Positions 1-61,077 of a stretch of 64,000 nucleotides of DNA are shown in pieces (position 1 is the stretch's first letter; each line of letters begins with the position of its first letter). This stretch comes from Pseudomonadota bacterium. GTDB lineage: Bacteria; Pseudomonadota; Gammaproteobacteria; Burkholderiales; Sulfuriferulaceae. The translations under genes and the position numbers were made by a program. The notes below the pieces were generated by a model. It did no database searches, had not been told where the DNA came from, and saw nothing but the letters and a program-made list of their open reading frames with translations. The DNA is taken from positions 62,001 to 126,000 of the forward strand of contig JAJYYK010000003.1 in NCBI GenBank assembly GCA_021801025.1. Reading direction: 5' to 3'.

Positions 1-500
1 ATCATACTCTGGTCTATGAGCAACGACAATGATATTAGACACGGCAGACATTGCGTTTTCAAGATGCACGTCCATTTGGTCTTTGTGACAAAATACCGCC
101 GTGGCGTATTCACAAAAGCCGTTCTGGATGACCTTAAAGAAATCTTCACCAGCGTGTGTACCGATTTTGAAGCCGAGTTGGTGGAATTCGACGGCGAGGA
201 CGACCATGTGCATCTTTTAGTGGAATATCCGCCCAAGATGGCGGTGTCGAAACTGGTTAACAGCCTTAAAGGTGTGTCCAGTCTCCTTATCCGAAAAAAG
301 AACTATCCCAGCATTAAGAAGAAACTATGGGGCGGCGCTCTTTGGTCGCCCAGCTACTTCGCCGGAAGTTGCGGTGGTGCGCCGATTGAAATCATTCGGC
401 AGTACATCGAGCAACAGCAAACCCCACATTAGATTCAAAGGACGGCGCTGCCGTCCGCGCTATTCATCCCCGCCCTGAACGACGGGGCTTTTCGCGCATT
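1..500 (+). mobile_element. IS200/IS605-family element, left end cut by the window edge
   Basis: The element is defined by a TnpA gene followed within about 60 bases by two short hairpins that look like an IS200/IS605 right end. The first pairs GGACGGC (440-446) with GCCGTCC (450-456). The second pairs CCCCG (468-472) with CGGGG (483-487) and is followed by TTTTCGCGC. Elements of this family have subterminal hairpins instead of terminal inverted repeats and make no target duplication, so the outer boundary cannot be fixed by eye. The left-end hairpin would lie in the 15 bases before the gene or outside the window. No TnpB gene follows, so this is an IS200-like (tnpA-only) arrangement. Confidence 0.75.
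16..432 (+). CDS. tnpA: IS200/IS605-family transposase TnpA (Y1 HUH type)
   Basis: This 138-residue protein has the normal length for an IS200/IS605 TnpA, which cuts and rejoins single-stranded DNA at subterminal hairpins using one tyrosine. The HUH metal-binding motif is visible as HVHLL near residue 65, after the family-typical N-terminus with VFVTKYRR near residue 23. The probable nucleophilic tyrosine is in the C-terminal helix, in EIIRQYIEQQ near residue 129. No frameshift or internal stop is present, so the gene appears intact. RAYT (REP-associated) transposases are relatives; the short length and the adjacent end hairpins favour an ordinary IS. Confidence 0.9.
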   Translation: MSNDNDIRHGRHCVFKMHVHLVFVTKYRRGVFTKAVLDDLKEIFTSVCTDFEAELVEFDGEDDHVHLLVEYPPKMAVSKLVNSLKGVSSLLIRKKNYPSIKKKLWGGALWSPSYFAGSCGGAPIEIIRQYIEQQQTPH

Positions 501-621
501 CCGGTAAATTCCATCGTTTCATACTGCTATCAATAATTCTTCAAAATCATCACCAACAGATGTATCGGTTTGCCACTTGATTGAAAATCATGATTATTTT
601 GTGATAAAATTGCACACCACA

Positions 622-1577: not shown

Positions 1578-1794
1578 TTTGCTACCGCTGGCAATCCACT
1601 CAGAAAAAAACACCTTTCATAATCTTACCTTTGAAACATTTATTAAAATTCCTTGCTGGTTTACCAAAAATGTCAAATGTAATGCCTGACCCTGTTTCTT
1701 TCAGCCACCGCCAATTCAGGTACACTGGGCAGCACGACTTATGTTGAACGGCAAATACAAGCCACAATTGCGAATTGAAATGGAAGGGAAACGG
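1578..1794. other. intergenic region between the antitoxin and the mshQ-like gene
   Basis: No supported gene is seen. The stretch includes TTCCTTGCTGGTTTA at about 1650, a short sequence that recurs at the 5' edge of other intergenic hairpin elements in this window (near 14428, 36523 and 60912). At 1741-1794 an in-frame upstream extension of the next gene is open but lacks a ribosome-binding site. Confidence 0.5.
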
Positions 1795-4700
1795 GTGAAA
1801 CAAACGGTCTGCCGCATGAGACAATTTTTGTTATTCGGTTTGGGTATGCTGCTGGCACACACTGCGCTGGCGACCAACTACAGTTTTCCAAGTAATATGC
1901 CTGCCGGATGCAGCAATGCAGGTGGAGGTAACTATACCTGTGGTAGCGTCAGCCTGAACTGGGGCGACACGATAACCATCAGCGGCCAAAAACTCGCCAG
2001 CATCGCCTTCGGTGGTAATTTGTCTATCCAAAATACACAAATCAACACCACTGGCTCGGCTTCAAATTTGTTCATAACCGTCAACGGAACACTCTTCTCA
2101 AACACCGGTGCCGCCATCATCGCCAATCTGACAGTGAACGGCGCCGCGAACTTTGGTTACCAGAACCAGATTACCGGCAACGTCAATGCGGTTTCAGTGA
2201 ACGACGGTGGAAATACGACATTCAACGGCAACATCACAGCAAGTAATGGTGTAAGCGTTGGCTATGGCACCCAAATCACCGGCAATGTCACGGCGGCATC
2301 GGTAACCGATGCTGGAAACGCGACCTACACCGGCAACATCACCGCAACCAATGGCGTAACTGTTGGTTATGGCACCCAGGTCACCGGCAATGTCACAGCA
2401 GGATCAGTCAGCGACAGCGGCGGTGCCCAGTACGGCGGCTCGGTAACGGCAACCAGCGGTTCTATCGCCCTGCAGAGCGACGACCAGGTAACCGGCAGCG
2501 TGACAGCCAAGGCAAATAACGGCGGGAACATCACCCTCGCCAGCAACACCCAAGTGTCAGGATGCGTCCAAACTCCCAGCAATAACAGCATCAGCCTCGC
2601 CTGGAATGCTGGCGCCGGTGGAGTATGCTGTCTCAGTGGCAGCAGTTGCGGAACCAGTTGCGTATCGAACAACAGCGGACAGCCGACGCCACCTACCTGT
2701 GGTACCTCGTCGCTGTCATTGCTCTCGCAATACCACATGGATGAACCCCAGTGGACAGGTGCACCGGGGCAAGTCGCCGACAGTTCAGGTAGCGGTTACA
2801 ACGCCACTGCCGTGAATGGCGTCAGCACTGCGAACACCAATCCTTCCCCTGCCATCGCGGGCAACCCTGGCACCTGCGGTTATGGCGCATTCAATCCCAA
2901 TACGAAGGACTATTATGTCGCGCTTCCTGCCAACTTTCCTCATCTGACTTCCGATTTTACCATCACCGCGTGGATGTATACCTTGAACAATAGCCAGCCT
3001 GGGCAACGCATTCTGGAAGATGACCAAAATAACAGTGGCGGCTATGGCTTTTCTTTGGGCGACGGCGGAACGGGAACAGTACGTTTTTTCGCGCGCGGTT
3101 CAAACCCGGTCATTCTCGACACGCCTGCTGTGATCAACAACAACACATGGTATTTTGTCGCCGCAGCAGTATCTGGTATCAGCCAGAACCAGAATGGATT
3201 CTGCAATTTTTCCCCCTTTTCCTGTCAGAATACCCGTTACATTTATGTTTTTAACGCCAATGGCAATTTGATTACCAGCGTCAATACCAATGCCAGCGGA
3301 TGGGGAACAGACACCGGCACAGTGTCCATTGGAGGCGAAGTCAATAACGCCTGCTGCGATGAAAACAACCCCAGATTCCACTTTGATGGCAGTCTGGATG
3401 AGGTTCAGGTTTTTAACGGTGCACTCACTCAGCAGCAGATTTCTGTGATCGCACAACAAACCCACCCCTGCCCCAACACCATCGTCACGCCAGGCAGCTT
3501 CAACGCCTACGACCACTCCACCCCGGCGGGCGCGATCACCGGCAACATCACCACCAAGATTTCCGGCGCGTCTTTCGGCACTGACGGCACGACCAGCGTT
3601 GATATCATTGCGCTCAACCCCACCAGAACGGCCATTCTTACCACTTTCACCGGCCCCGTCAAAGTTGACTTGCTCGACAGCAGCAGCGGCGGCGTACCCG
3701 ACAGCAACGGTTGCAACGCAGGCTGGCCGATCATCCAGACTCTCGTGCCCAATCCGATCTTTACACCTCCTGATAATGGTCGCCTCACAGTCAATGTCAC
3801 CGAAAACAACGCCTGGCCCAACGTGCGGGTGCGCATCACCTATCCTGCCTTCGGTCCCGCTGTTGCAACAGGTTGCTCCACCGACAATTTCGCCATCCGG
3901 CCCTACAGCTTCGACCCGGTCAGCGCCAGCGATCAAGACTGGGCCACGGCGGGCACGGCACGTCCGCTATACAATACTTCAGCCACCGGCGGCGATGTGC
4001 ACAAAGCCGGCCAGCCTTTCACCCTTGGTGCGACAGCAATCAATGCGGCAGGCAACACGACCACCAACTACGCCGGCAACCCTGCCGCCGTACTGACCGC
4101 ATGCATACTGCCCGCCAGCTGCACCCCAGGCATACTGGGCACCGGCACCTGGAGTAGCGCGTCAGGCGTCATCACCACCAACACCGCCACTTACAGCGAT
4201 GTGGGCGCATTCACTGCGCAGCTGGTGGACAGCACGTTTGCCAGCGTCGATGCTTCGCAAGAATCGGCAACGCTGCTGGACATCACCTCAGTATCCTTTA
4301 ATATCGGCCGCTTCGTACCCGACCATTTTGATCTGCTTAACCCCAACACACCTTGGTTGCAAACCTTTGGCACCAGCGATGCGCAGTGCAATACCCCTGT
4401 CACGCCTCCCACTCCCAAACGCAGCTTCACCTACATCGGTCAGGCCTTCGGTTATCTCACTGTGCCGCAAGCCACCGTATACGCCCGCAATGCAGGCGGC
4501 GGCACCACGCTCAACTATGTGGGTAATTTATGGCACATCCCTGCCGGCACCACACCGCCATTGCAACCGCCGCCAGTTTATTCAAGCACCACCCTGCCCG
4601 TCAGCACAAACACTCTGGACACCGGTCTGGTCACCCCACCGACCGTTGCACAAAATAACGGTGTTGCACCCAACAACAGCGGCCCCGGCACCGGACTGGT

Positions 4701-5430
4701 CAGCGTCAATCCCACTGATCAACTGGCCTACAACCGTAACCTGACAGTGCCATTACAACCTCCCTTCAACGCCAGTATCTCGCTCACCCTCAGCGTGACC
4801 GACAGCAGCGAATCTGCCGTGACGGGCAATGGCACCATCAATACGCTTAACCCCGGCACGTTTTCCAATATCGCATTCGACTCCGGCAACCTGTTTTACT
4901 ACGGAAGGCTCACCCTCAGCAATGCCAGCGGCTCGGTCAACTTGCCCCTGCCGGTGCCGATGCAAGCGCAATACTGGAATGGGACGAATTTTGTGACCAA
5001 TGTGGCAGACAATTGCACCGACATTGCGGCCGGCAATATTGTCATGGGGAATTACCAGAAAAACCTCGCACCGTGCAAGACGGCCGCCGCCATCAGCAAC
5101 CCTTTGCTGGGCGGCAAAGGCAATCTGACCTTGAGTGCGCCGGGAGCGGGGAATAACGGTAGCGTGGATTTGGCGGTGAATCTGGCACCGCTGGCAAACG
5201 GTCAAACCTGCTCGGCCCCTGACGGTTCAATTTGCCTGACCGCATCACCGCCCAACGATCAAACTTGCCTGATCAGCGGCGGCACACAGAGCACCTCCAG
5301 CGTAGCAGGACTGTCCTGGCTTCAGGGCAAATGGTCGGGCACCAGTTACGACCTTGACCCCATTGCACGCGCCACTTTTGGGATTTACAAAAACGCGAAT
5401 CAATTCATCTTTATGCGTGAAATGTATTAA
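1795..5430 (+). CDS. mshQ: MshQ-like surface protein (repeat region, LamG-like domain, DUF6701)
   Basis: This protein of about 1210 residues is probably secreted or pilus-associated. The GTG at 1795 is preferred over the ATG at 1741 because it follows GGAAGGG at good spacing and gives a clean signal peptide (MRQFLLFGLGMLLAHTALA). The order is: signal peptide; beta-helix-like N-terminal part with three 35-residue repeats (roughly residues 126-231); a Cys-rich stretch; a LamG/concanavalin-like domain around residues 310-550 (DFTITAWMYT, NTWYFVAAAVSG, DGSLDEVQVFNGAL); and a long C-terminal DUF6701 region ending RATFGIYKNANQFIFMREMY, the usual end of MshQ proteins. In Vibrio-type loci mshQ is the last gene; here it precedes mshI. 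The role is inferred to be adhesion or pilus tip function. About 300 bases separate it from the next gene. Confidence 0.85.
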   Translation: MKQTVCRMRQFLLFGLGMLLAHTALATNYSFPSNMPAGCSNAGGGNYTCGSVSLNWGDTITISGQKLASIAFGGNLSIQNTQINTTGSASNLFITVNGTLFSNTGAAIIANLTVNGAANFGYQNQITGNVNAVSVNDGGNTTFNGNITASNGVSVGYGTQITGNVTAASVTDAGNATYTGNITATNGVTVGYGTQVTGNVTAGSVSDSGGAQYGGSVTATSGSIALQSDDQVTGSVTAKANNGGNITLASNTQVSGCVQTPSNNSISLAWNAGAGGVCCLSGSSCGTSCVSNNSGQPTPPTCGTSSLSLLSQYHMDEPQWTGAPGQVADSSGSGYNATAVNGVSTANTNPSPAIAGNPGTCGYGAFNPNTKDYYVALPANFPHLTSDFTITAWMYTLNNSQPGQRILEDDQNNSGGYGFSLGDGGTGTVRFFARGSNPVILDTPAVINNNTWYFVAAAVSGISQNQNGFCNFSPFSCQNTRYIYVFNANGNLITSVNTNASGWGTDTGTVSIGGEVNNACCDENNPRFHFDGSLDEVQVFNGALTQQQISVIAQQTHPCPNTIVTPGSFNAYDHSTPAGAITGNITTKISGASFGTDGTTSVDIIALNPTRTAILTTFTGPVKVDLLDSSSGGVPDSNGCNAGWPIIQTLVPNPIFTPPDNGRLTVNVTENNAWPNVRVRITYPAFGPAVATGCSTDNFAIRPYSFDPVSASDQDWATAGTARPLYNTSATGGDVHKAGQPFTLGATAINAAGNTTTNYAGNPAAVLTACILPASCTPGILGTGTWSSASGVITTNTATYSDVGAFTAQLVDSTFASVDASQESATLLDITSVSFNIGRFVPDHFDLLNPNTPWLQTFGTSDAQCNTPVTPPTPKRSFTYIGQAFGYLTVPQATVYARNAGGGTTLNYVGNLWHIPAGTTPPLQPPPVYSSTTLPVSTNTLDTGLVTPPTVAQNNGVAPNNSGPGTGLVSVNPTDQLAYNRNLTVPLQPPFNASISLTLSVTDSSESAVTGNGTINTLNPGTFSNIAFDSGNLFYYGRLTLSNASGSVNLPLPVPMQAQYWNGTNFVTNVADNCTDIAAGNIVMGNYQKNLAPCKTAAAISNPLLGGKGNLTLSAPGAGNNGSVDLAVNLAPLANGQTCSAPDGSICLTASPPNDQTCLISGGTQSTSSVAGLSWLQGKWSGTSYDLDPIARATFGIYKNANQFIFMREMY
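2170..2487 (+). repeat. three tandem 105-bp in-frame repeats in the mshQ-like gene
   Basis: Units start at 2170, 2275 and 2380. Each encodes about 35 residues of the form [IV]TGNV-A-SV-D-G--T--GNITA-NGV-VGYGTQ; the third is diverged and one residue longer, and a shorter fourth partial unit follows. The Gly/Asn/Thr pattern is like a right-handed beta-helix or bactofilin-like polymer fold. Length variation by slippage or recombination between units is possible. Confidence 0.85.
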
Positions 5431-5529
5431 TCCGAACATTTCAACAATATCCGGGGCAGGATTTTTCAACTACGCGGTGCTACAGCAATTCACCATTTCA
5501 AAAATAACGACATTATTCTTTCACTTTAA

Positions 5530-5569
5530 GCAAGGAGGTCACCGGTCTAAAGGCCGGTGACCTCCTTGC
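5530..5569. terminator. 16-bp perfect hairpin after the mshQ-like gene (terminator or REP-like repeat)
   Basis: The arms GCAAGGAGGTCACCGG (5530-5545) and its exact complement (5554-5569) enclose an 8-base loop. No T run follows on the + strand, so a simple rho-independent terminator is not certain. The right arm and next bases (AAGGCCGGTGAC-TC-TTGCTGCG) match the end of the intergenic element at 14425-14527, so it may belong to the same dispersed repeat family. The left arm also contains a perfect anti-anti-Shine-Dalgarno-like AAGGAGGT. Confidence 0.7.
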
Positions 5570-5714
5570 TGCGTGAAACGTATTAGCAAAAAACAATTTG
5601 TCCCCCGCGCAATCGGGAATGATGATGGCGAAGTTAAAAACCACATTCATCTATATCAAAATCATCCATGACACATCATTCTGGAAACGACCATTGAAAA
5701 TCCTTTTAATTCAT

Positions 5715-14323: not shown

Positions 14324-14424
14324 GATCTTGATCTCCTGAAAAACAGACATCGGATATCACCACCGGTCATCATACTACTTTTTAGTGCTGCAGATAAAAT
14401 TTAAGTTTCTGGTTATTTATCCTT

Positions 14425-14527
14425 TTTCCTTGCTGGTTTATTTAAAGGCGCGGTCAGGGAGGGGATGCACACCCCTCCCTGACTAAATATCCACCGGCCT
14501 GAAGGCCGGTGATCTCATTGCTGCGCT
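14425..14527. repeat. intergenic structured repeat, copy C (two hairpins)
   Basis: After TTCCTTGCTGGTTTA (about 14427-14441) comes GGCGCG and a perfect 12-bp stem, GTCAGGGAGGGG (14453-14464) with its complement at 14472-14483, enclosing the loop ATGCACA. A second stem, CACCGGCCT (14492-14500) with 14503-14511, follows, then TCTCATTGCTGCG. The same order with a different but equally perfect 12-bp stem and the same loop occurs at 60997-61027, and the second hairpin resembles the one at 5530-5569. The element lies between the start of the nitroreductase and the end of the HIRAN gene. Confidence 0.75.
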
Positions 14528-36290: not shown

Positions 36291-36729
36291 CTGAAATGGT
36301 GTGTCCTGCAGGCCACTGCGGGCAAGACATAATCTGAAATTTCTGCAACGCGCCAGAGTAAAAAGGAATTGCTTTGCTTTGTGTGCAGGCCAGGACTTAT
36401 CCCGACAATTCACCGCATCGATCACCACAGTGTCAGGCCGAAGCCTCCCTGCTCAACCCACTATTTAATCCATGGTACTTCAGGTTTCTGCTGTGCCATA
36501 TGAACGACCCTCCTCATTCCTTGCCGGTTTACTCCCAGACTCCGGACCGGCAGAAGCGCCGAACCCCGCCTTTTAGAGGCGGGGTTCGGCGCTTTGAACG
36601 AAGCTACCCATTACGAATCAGACAGAACTGTCACGATGAATACCGGCATTCAGGCAAGCTGATCCGCTTGCCCCCTCCTGACGCAAAGCTGGCATAGAAT
36701 GCGACCAGGAAGGGGAATGCACAGACAAA
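36291..36729. other. 439-bp region between mltD and cytochrome c4, convergent genes
   Basis: No gene is supported. It contains a structured element at about 36523-36594 (described separately). The rest is unremarkable sequence with an open frame of about 100 codons that matches nothing I know. Confidence 0.6.
36523..36594. repeat. intergenic structured repeat, copy D, with a 17-bp perfect hairpin (also a terminator candidate)
   Basis: TTCCTTGCCGGTTTA begins the element, followed by GGACCGGCAGAAG, which matches GGACAGGCAGAAG of the copy at 60908. The hairpin arms are 36554-36570 (AAGCGCCGAACCCCGCC) and 36578-36594, exact complements, with a 7-base loop. Lying between convergent genes, it could also end transcription from both sides. 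Its CCCCGCC/GGCGGGG core resembles IS200/IS605 end hairpins. Confidence 0.7.
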
Positions 36730-60878: not shown

Positions 60879-60907
60879 GAATAATTATCCGGGTTAACTG
60901 CTTATTT

Positions 60908-61077
60908 ATCAAAATTCCTTGCCGGTTCGAGATCCCGCTCTTCAGGACAGGCAGAAGTACCACACCCCAGCGAAAGCTGGCGTGATATATGGCGCGGTTG
61001 GAAAGGCGATGCACACGCCTTTCCAACTGAATAGCCATCGACCATATGGATAATAACCTTATTACTGCGACTAAGTT
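60908..61077. repeat. intergenic structured repeat, copy E (several hairpins)
   Basis: The element begins TTCCTTGCCGGTT, has GGACAGGCAGAAG (shared with 36541-36556), a small hairpin CCAGCGAAAGCTGG, then GGCGCG and a perfect 12-bp stem GTTGGAAAGGCG (60997-61008)/61016-61027 with the loop ATGCACA, and ends TTACTGCGACTAAG. The 12-bp stem differs from that of copy C at five positions, all compensated, while loop and flanks are the same. It lies upstream of tsaB and downstream of the SUMF1 gene. Confidence 0.75.

What the first reader, a model, noticed from the sequence alone, without database searches (positions are those of the whole stretch)
14425..14527. Dispersed intergenic hairpin element with compensated stem changes (copies at 14.4 and 61.0 kb)
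Seen directly: two loci 46 kb apart share TTCCTTGC[TC]GGTT, GGCGCG, a perfect 12-bp stem, the loop ATGCACA, and an end with CTGCG. The two stems (GTCAGGGAGGGG and GTTGGAAAGGCG) differ at 5 of 12 positions, and every change is matched on the other arm. That is the signature of selection on a folded DNA or RNA, not of simple drift. Both copies lie between genes and outside coding frames. Candidate meanings: a mobile single-stranded DNA element moved by a Y1 transposase (one is present at 16-432), or a regulatory RNA family.
Basis: partly seen in the sequence, partly recalled or inferred. Interest (0 to 1): 0.72.

Follow-up and report, generated by a model that had tools for sequence, protein, structure and literature searches.

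The report
Miniature single-strand jumping DNA family
The two hairpins are copies of a short gene-free jumping element that inserts next to the letters TTTAT without copying its target, a pattern best explained by a borrowed single-strand transposase, and it joins a known but little-studied class of elements.

Summary
The 14.4 kb and 61.0 kb loci are two of at least 61 places (E <= 0.001) that match one interspersed repeat in this 2.38 Mb betaproteobacterial genome. Five of 18 genomes of the genus carry it; relatives sit on a Polaromonas plasmid and at the end of a viral-collection contig. The full element is about 157 bp with four hairpins whose stems covary. Sister-species empty sites show the element, C...TTGCT, directly 3' of a TTTAT that stays single (3 readable exact joins of 14 unoccupied sites, 1 join without TTTAT). 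Copies with left guide GGTTTAAA sit at TTTAT (67 of 72), those with GGTTTGAA mostly at TTCAT (7 of 12), as the guide-target pairing of IS200/IS605 (Y1) transposons predicts. I read it as a PATE-like non-autonomous IS200/IS605-type element; copy 1 lost its first two hairpins. The mobiliser is not identified: the Y1 gene at 16-432 belongs to an IS605 with another right end, and the sister genome G004, with 17 homogeneous full-length copies, has no detected Y1 gene. A cis-regulatory RNA reading is not supported.

The parts
14416..14420 (+). TTTAT target pentanucleotide, left of copy 1 (not part of the element)
   Evidence: empty sites show that TTTAT belongs to the target
14421..14522 (+). copy 1: core-deleted element (hp1 and hp2 lost; hp3 and hp4 kept), ends C...TTGCT
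   Evidence: alignment to the 162-nt consensus (positions 1-24 and 80-162), R1 E 3.0e-25
14453..14483 (+). copy 1 hp3, 12-bp stem with loop ATGCACA
14492..14511 (+). copy 1 hp4, right near-terminal palindrome CACCGGCCTGAAGGCCGGTG
60905..60909 (+). TTTAT target, left of copy 2
   Evidence: TTTAT is also present at this place in sister genome G004
60910..61066 (+). copy 2: full-length element of subfamily B, decayed at hp1, hp4 and right end (TTACT for TTGCT); its guide reads GGTTCGAG
   Evidence: 83.9% to the B consensus over 161 positions, R1 E 1.0e-29
60967..60980 (+). copy 2 hp2 (CCAGC GAAA GCTGG)
60997..61027 (+). copy 2 hp3, 12-bp stem with loop ATGCACA, 5 of 12 pairs changed against copy 1, all compensated
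36511..36586 (+). decayed copy (left part); the same site is also occupied in G004
5529..5570 (.). near-perfect palindrome made of two right ends head to head (AGCAAGGAGGTCACCGG...CCGGTGACCTCCTTGCT)
1639..1663 (+). left-end-only fragment TTTATTAAAATTCCTTGCTGGTTTA

Best explanation
It is a non-autonomous transposable element of the IS200/IS605 (single-strand, Y1) kind: a palindrome-associated transposable element (PATE). Shown: about 157 bp, too short for a transposase gene; no terminal inverted repeats; hairpins near both ends; insertion 3' of TTTAT without duplication at the readable empty sites; homogeneous copies in a sister species; stems that covary; a guide motif at the foot of the left hairpin that covaries with the third base of the target; core deletions. 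Inferred: a Y1 transposase supplied in trans binds the left and right hairpins on single-stranded DNA, the left guide pairs with the target, the element leaves as a single-stranded circle and joins 3' of a new TTTAT. The two copies in the window are relics of such insertions, copy 1 having lost its left hairpins.
For: Copies: 61 places at E <= 0.001 in the own genome (150 of 601 candidates scored). Relatives: 5 of 18 genus genomes, 0 of 43 others of the order. Sister-species comparison: 14 unoccupied sites, of which 3 join at a single TTTAT (L275/L305, L282/L300, L287/L279), 1 has TTTAT plus 4 bases, 2 keep TTTAT on the left with the right side diverged; 6 further sites are occupied in both. 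TTTAT precedes 44 of 61 left ends against 0.14% of positions. Right end TTGCT in 50 of 58. Guide base A: third target base T 67, C 3, G 2; guide base G: C 7, G 3, T 2; Fisher p 6e-8 (32 left ends without TTNAT left out). Stems: 94.5% of cells paired, 11 pairs changed on both sides; 4 of 5 measures reached by 0 of 500 shuffles, the fifth by 46 of 500. Core-deleted copies: 26 of 41 own copies with both ends are 111 bp or shorter. PATE definition in passages of PMC3119063.
Against: No mobiliser is identified. G004, G005 and G015 carry the element but have no Y1_Tnp match, while 8 genus genomes with Y1 matches (G001, G007, G008, G011-G014, G017) have no element match. None of the 5 Y1 genes of the own genome is flanked by the element within 1.5 kb; only a left-end fragment lies 1.2 kb from the one at 16-432. 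In one search, site L273/L286 joins without TTTAT and 7 of 14 unoccupied sites could not be read (flanks diverged, or gap too long and not printed: L357, L359); in L286:2306 no TTTAT stands where the left flank ends. No orientation bias to GC skew, 29 of 48, although IS608-like elements favour the lagging strand (recalled). The right end TTGCT differs from the TCAA end of the local IS605. The guide/target table counts related copies, so its p value overstates independence; one of the two G-guide copies at TTTAT is copy 2 of the window.
Confidence: 0.78

Rival explanations
1. A REP/BIME-like repeat spread by a REP-associated tyrosine transposase (RAYT) rather than a PATE.
For: Four RAYT-size Y1 genes are in the own genome (229-309 aa). 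The right end finishes in CT, the dinucleotide cut by E. coli TnpAREP (passages of PMC8266576). GGAG stands before hp2 in most rows of A1.
Against: No GTAG tetranucleotide at the foot of hp1 or hp4. Most short copies have lost the hairpins behind GGAG. RAYT-size Y1 genes do not follow the element: G008, G012, G013 and G017 have them without the element, G004 the reverse. None of the four has the element within 1.5 kb.
Confidence: 0.1
2. A dispersed functional RNA (cis-regulatory leader, terminator or sRNA family) whose stems are kept by selection on the RNA.
For: Compensated stems; loop GATGCA[CA]AC kept in Polaromonas, L360 and G146; a four-hairpin core beyond what the termini need.
Against: Own and sister species differ in which sites are filled. 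No fixed orientation to neighbours: 18, 13, 9 and 9 of 49. No Rfam family at gathering score. 25 of 41 own copies with both ends are 111 bp or shorter and lack the hp3 loop.
Confidence: 0.07
3. Spread by an IS110-type (bridge RNA) recombinase or by another unidentified recombinase that leaves no duplication.
For: An IS110 gene lies about 440 bp from the Polaromonas copy. IS110 elements also leave little or no duplication (recalled).
Against: The shared part of that IS110 with a second Polaromonas plasmid stops about 21 bases before the record's end, some 240 bp short of the element. No IS110 match in G004, G005 or G015. A short left-only target with a covarying left guide is the IS200/IS605 pattern.
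Confidence: 0.05

Closest known systems
PATEs (palindrome-associated transposable elements) of Haloquadratum walsbyi, PMC3119063 (passages read)
   Same: No terminal inverted repeats, near-terminal palindromes alike at both ends, no target duplication, a 4-6 nt target on the left, too short for a transposase, longer spacing at the 5' than at the 3' end, repeat-mediated core deletions down to about 52 bp, and insertions in a genome whose IS200-type transposase genes are all broken.
   Different: Betaproteobacteria instead of haloarchaea; a conserved internal core of two more hairpins with compensated stems; no transposase-bearing parent found.
IS200/IS605 family; local IS605 at window 16-432 (tnpA) with tnpB outside the window
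   Same: By eye, no empty site: target TTTAC here (TTTAT and TTGAT in L092 and L094) on the left, first element base C, A-rich foot of the left hairpin, right hairpin about 10 nt from the right end.
   Different: The local IS605 ends in GTCAA and encodes TnpA and TnpB; the element ends in TTGCT and encodes nothing.
REP / BIME / RAYT (REPtron) systems, PMC8266576 (passages read)
   Same: Intergenic palindromes, Y1 enzyme, CT cleavage.
   Different: No GTAG tag, two near-terminal palindromes, defined 157-bp unit.
BRE, Beta-proteobacterial repeat element, PMC3110155 (passages and section 14 read)
   Same: Dispersed, usually intergenic repeat in Betaproteobacteria, also counted in Polaromonas JS666.
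   Different: About 90 bp, 69% GC, often in tandem, chromosomal only. Its sequence is in a figure that I could not see, so kinship is untested.

Membership tests
PATE / non-autonomous IS200/IS605 | no terminal inverted repeats | tested here: met
   left end CCTTTTTCCTTGC and right end GACCTCATTGCT are not inverted repeats (read from alignment A1)
PATE / non-autonomous IS200/IS605 | palindromes close to both ends | tested here: met
   hp1 and hp4 in A1; copy 1 has lost hp1
PATE / non-autonomous IS200/IS605 | no target duplication; insertion 3' of a fixed 4-6 nt target | tested here: met
   3 joins at a single TTTAT of 14 unoccupied sites; 7 unreadable, 1 without TTTAT
PATE / non-autonomous IS200/IS605 | too short to encode a transposase | tested here: met
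   157 bp
PATE / non-autonomous IS200/IS605 | guide at the foot of the left hairpin matched to the target | tested here: met
   third target base covaries with a guide base, p 6e-8, related copies counted
PATE / non-autonomous IS200/IS605 | palindromes similar to those of a transposase-bearing IS200/IS605 element | tested here: inconclusive
   left hairpins look alike by eye (AAAACC...CCTTCAGG) but right ends differ, and no Y1 gene of G000 is flanked by the element
PATE / non-autonomous IS200/IS605 | moved by a Y1 transposase | not testable with these tools
   needs an enzyme assay; no Y1 match in G004, G005, G015
REP (RAYT) | GTAG-type tetranucleotide directly 5' of the palindrome | tested here: not met
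   feet of hp1 and hp4 read AAAA and TATC; GGAG only before hp2
REP (RAYT) | REPs near a RAYT gene | tested here: not met
   4 RAYT-size genes of G000, no element match within 1.5 kb
classical MITE | terminal inverted repeats and target duplication | tested here: not met
known Rfam RNA family | match at gathering score | tested here: not met
   window 0 matches; L255, L361, L363 0 matches

The most novel reading that the evidence does not exclude
The conserved core (hp2, and hp3 with the loop GATGCA[CA]AC) is a functional structured nucleic acid carried as cargo, kept across bacterial families by compensated changes and not needed for transposition. The element would then be a mobile vehicle for a structured RNA or a protein-binding DNA, or be moved by an enzyme that is not a known Y1 transposase.
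Probability: 0.15. Interest if true: 0.75.

Novelty: new member of a known kind. Interest (0 to 1): 0.5.

Why it matters
PATEs are described from Haloquadratum (PMC3119063), with mentions from cyanobacteria, Salmonella and Halanaerobium (passages of PMC4853749 and PMC7290912). This family has many copies in sister species and shows natural covariation between target and left guide, so the rule by which IS200/IS605 elements choose targets can be read from genomes. It repeats the puzzle met in Haloquadratum: homogeneous copies in a genome without a visible Y1 transposase. The conserved core asks what those two hairpins are for.

Tried and rejected
Considered and dropped. (1) The Y1 gene at 16-432 as proven mobiliser: its element is an IS605 with tnpB and another right end. 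(2) IS110: shared part stops short of the Polaromonas element; none in G004, G005, G015. (3) RAYT/REP: no GTAG tag, no linkage, distribution does not match. (4) Rfam families: none at gathering score; 11 weak hits lie far below theirs. (5) Autonomous version in G015 contig C159: several broken copies and another repeat, no transposase recognised among the ORFs by eye. (6) Replication-strand bias: 29 of 48, not significant. (7) Phage or viral carriage: no BLAST match in phages at E 0.01, none for the left-end pattern in viral contigs; two hp3 patterns gave four loci, of which one, L360, holds a partial copy. (8) 1251 plasmid records at E up to 10: the rows shown match a single hairpin only, except Polaromonas JS666. 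(9) Organism name: the PurL scan gives Thiobacillus sp. UBA2487 at 70% as nearest named record, so only 'Betaproteobacteria' is claimed. (10) Whether core-deleted copies move by themselves: undecided. Subfamily A, first 45 nt, median difference: core-deleted G000 4.4% (10 copies), G004 4.4% (6); full-length G000 8.9% (4), G004 4.4% (17). An earlier table mixed subfamilies and held one copy twice. (11), a first guide/target listing, was too loose and is replaced. (12) One copy (G000 C14:57888) was counted twice; one search recounts without it.

Papers: passages of PMC3119063, PMC8266576, PMC7290912, PMC4853749 and PMC10969869; passages and section 14 of PMC3110155; all others only as search listings. 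PMC2570305 is not held.

Full report
Observation. The two loci are as described: same left motif, GGCGCG, a perfect 12-bp stem with loop ATGCACA, 5 of 12 pairs changed and all compensated, both between the long ORFs.

Copies. The left motif TTCCTTGCYGGTT occurs 32 times exactly in the 2.38 Mb genome, against 0 for the reversed pattern; some of these are fragments or unrelated (for example L016, L020 and L024). A covariance model from 29 near-full-length copies (A1; R1) finds 61 places at E <= 0.001 and 73 rows at E <= 0.1 in the own genome (150 of 601 candidates scored, so a lower bound).

Relatives. Consensus DNA search: 5 of 61 genomes, all in the same genus (5 of 18), 0 of 43 others. R1 rows at E <= 0.001: G004 53, G006 28, G015 20, G005 8, and 0 in G002, G003, G010 and G017; some rows are antisense hits to the same copy. 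In 300 genomes drawn from the order, G000 and G004 match strongly and three others weakly (G146, G287, G136, with stricter filters and 9 candidates scored per genome, so distant copies may be missed). G146 shows the four hairpins and the loop GATGCAAAC. A search of 31 relatives of G146 with its own copy found no second full copy. A clear relative (R1 85 bits) lies on Polaromonas sp. JS666 plasmid 2, and a partial one at the end of viral-collection contig L360.

Structure. On A1 the named stems (hp2 interior left out, because the two subfamilies use unrelated sequences there) pair in 94.5% of cells, with 11 pairs changed on both sides. Four of the five measures are reached by 0 of 500 shuffles; 'further pair types' is reached by 46 of 500. 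Slid controls pair in 26-50% of cells. The counts treat related copies as independent and the structure was drawn from these sequences. As single-stranded DNA all four tested copies fold better than every shuffle (z -3.9 to -9.8).

Boundaries and insertion. Sister genome G004 is about 92% identical. Comparing flanks in both directions leaves 14 unoccupied and 6 jointly occupied sites. Of the 14, three join at a single TTTAT (CATGTTTAT|GTGCTCC and CGCTTTAT|GACGAAAGG; in L287/L279 the right flank aligns from its first base with substitutions), one has four extra bases after TTTAT, two keep TTTAT on the left with a diverged right side (L298:8772, and copy 2 of the window, where G004 holds about 150 bp of other sequence), one joins without TTTAT (L273/L286), and seven could not be read; two of these (L357, L359) were not printed because of long gaps, and in L286:2306 no TTTAT stands where the left flank ends. 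So the element starts at C and ends at TTGCT, and TTTAT belongs to the target. TTTAT precedes 44 of 61 left ends (background 0.14%), TTGCT ends 50 of 58 and G follows in 35 of 56. For copy 1, the two G004 contigs that carry its flanks both stop beside the site, which suggests an unassembled copy there.

Guide and target. IS200/IS605 elements choose their target by pairing it with a guide at the foot of the hairpin (passages of PMC7290912, and PMC8266576). Here copies with guide base A (as in GGTTTAAA) have targets TTTAT 67, TTCAT 3, TTGAT 2; copies with G (as in GGTTTGAA) have TTCAT 7, TTGAT 3, TTTAT 2 (Fisher p 6e-8; 32 left ends without TTNAT left out). The ten G copies at TTCAT or TTGAT come from G005, G006, G015, Polaromonas, L360 and G287 (the last, L242, is doubtful); the two at TTTAT are copy 2 of the window and L374. 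Relatedness inflates the p value.

Deletions. Many copies lack the core: length classes near 109, 90 and 59 bp; 26 of 41 own copies with both ends are 111 bp or shorter, and of these only copy 1 of the window keeps the hp3 loop. Joints lie at short direct repeats such as CCCTGA (sequence). Copy 1 lost hp1 and hp2. The same behaviour is described for PATEs, down to 52 bp (PMC3119063).

Context. Of 64 copies longer than 50 bp in the fetched G000 and G004 stretches, 49 are intergenic with both neighbours in view, 9 lie at stretch edges and 6 inside ORFs, 5 of which are shorter than 500 bp; the crude caller marks 88% of sequence as coding. Orientation to neighbours is mixed: 18, 13, 9, 9. No bias to GC skew, 29 of 48.

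Mobiliser. The own genome has 5 Y1_Tnp genes: one TnpA of an IS605 with divergent tnpB (window 16-432) and four RAYT-size ones. None is flanked by the element (a left-end fragment lies 1.2 kb from the first). G004, G005 and G015 have no Y1 match and no IS110 match; G005 is 93% and G015 77% complete. Either the enzyme was lost, or it sits on an unbinned contig (several G004 copies lie near contig ends), or it is of another kind. This is the main gap.

Conclusion. In kind it works like, and meets the descriptive features of, a PATE of the IS200/IS605 type; similarity to a transposase-bearing parent is inconclusive and movement by a Y1 enzyme is inferred. The library searches listed no paper that I recognised as describing this family, but most listed papers were seen only as titles and abstract starts. 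BRE (PMC3110155) could not be compared because its sequence is only in a figure.

Noticed in passing
window 16-508 and upstream (G000 C12, L031): Complete-looking IS605: tnpA at 16-432, divergent tnpB mostly outside the window, left-end hairpin at 468-487 beside target TTTAC (minus strand), right end ...GGATGTCAA.
   Followed up: partly
window 5529-5570: Palindrome of two right ends of the element placed head to head.
   Followed up: no
L090 (G015 C159), L126 and L131 (G006), L069 (G005): A second dispersed repeat, with edges like GGAAGCACTGATTAATTC in some copies, lies next to element copies.
   Followed up: no
L282:8653-8762 (G004) and L300:10000-10110 (G000): The same site is occupied in both species, yet the G004 copy carries variants seen in other G004 copies and not in the G000 one, as if by conversion or repeated insertion.
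   Followed up: no
window 1741-5430: 1229-aa protein with bactofilin, laminin-G-like and DUF6701 domain matches.
   Followed up: no
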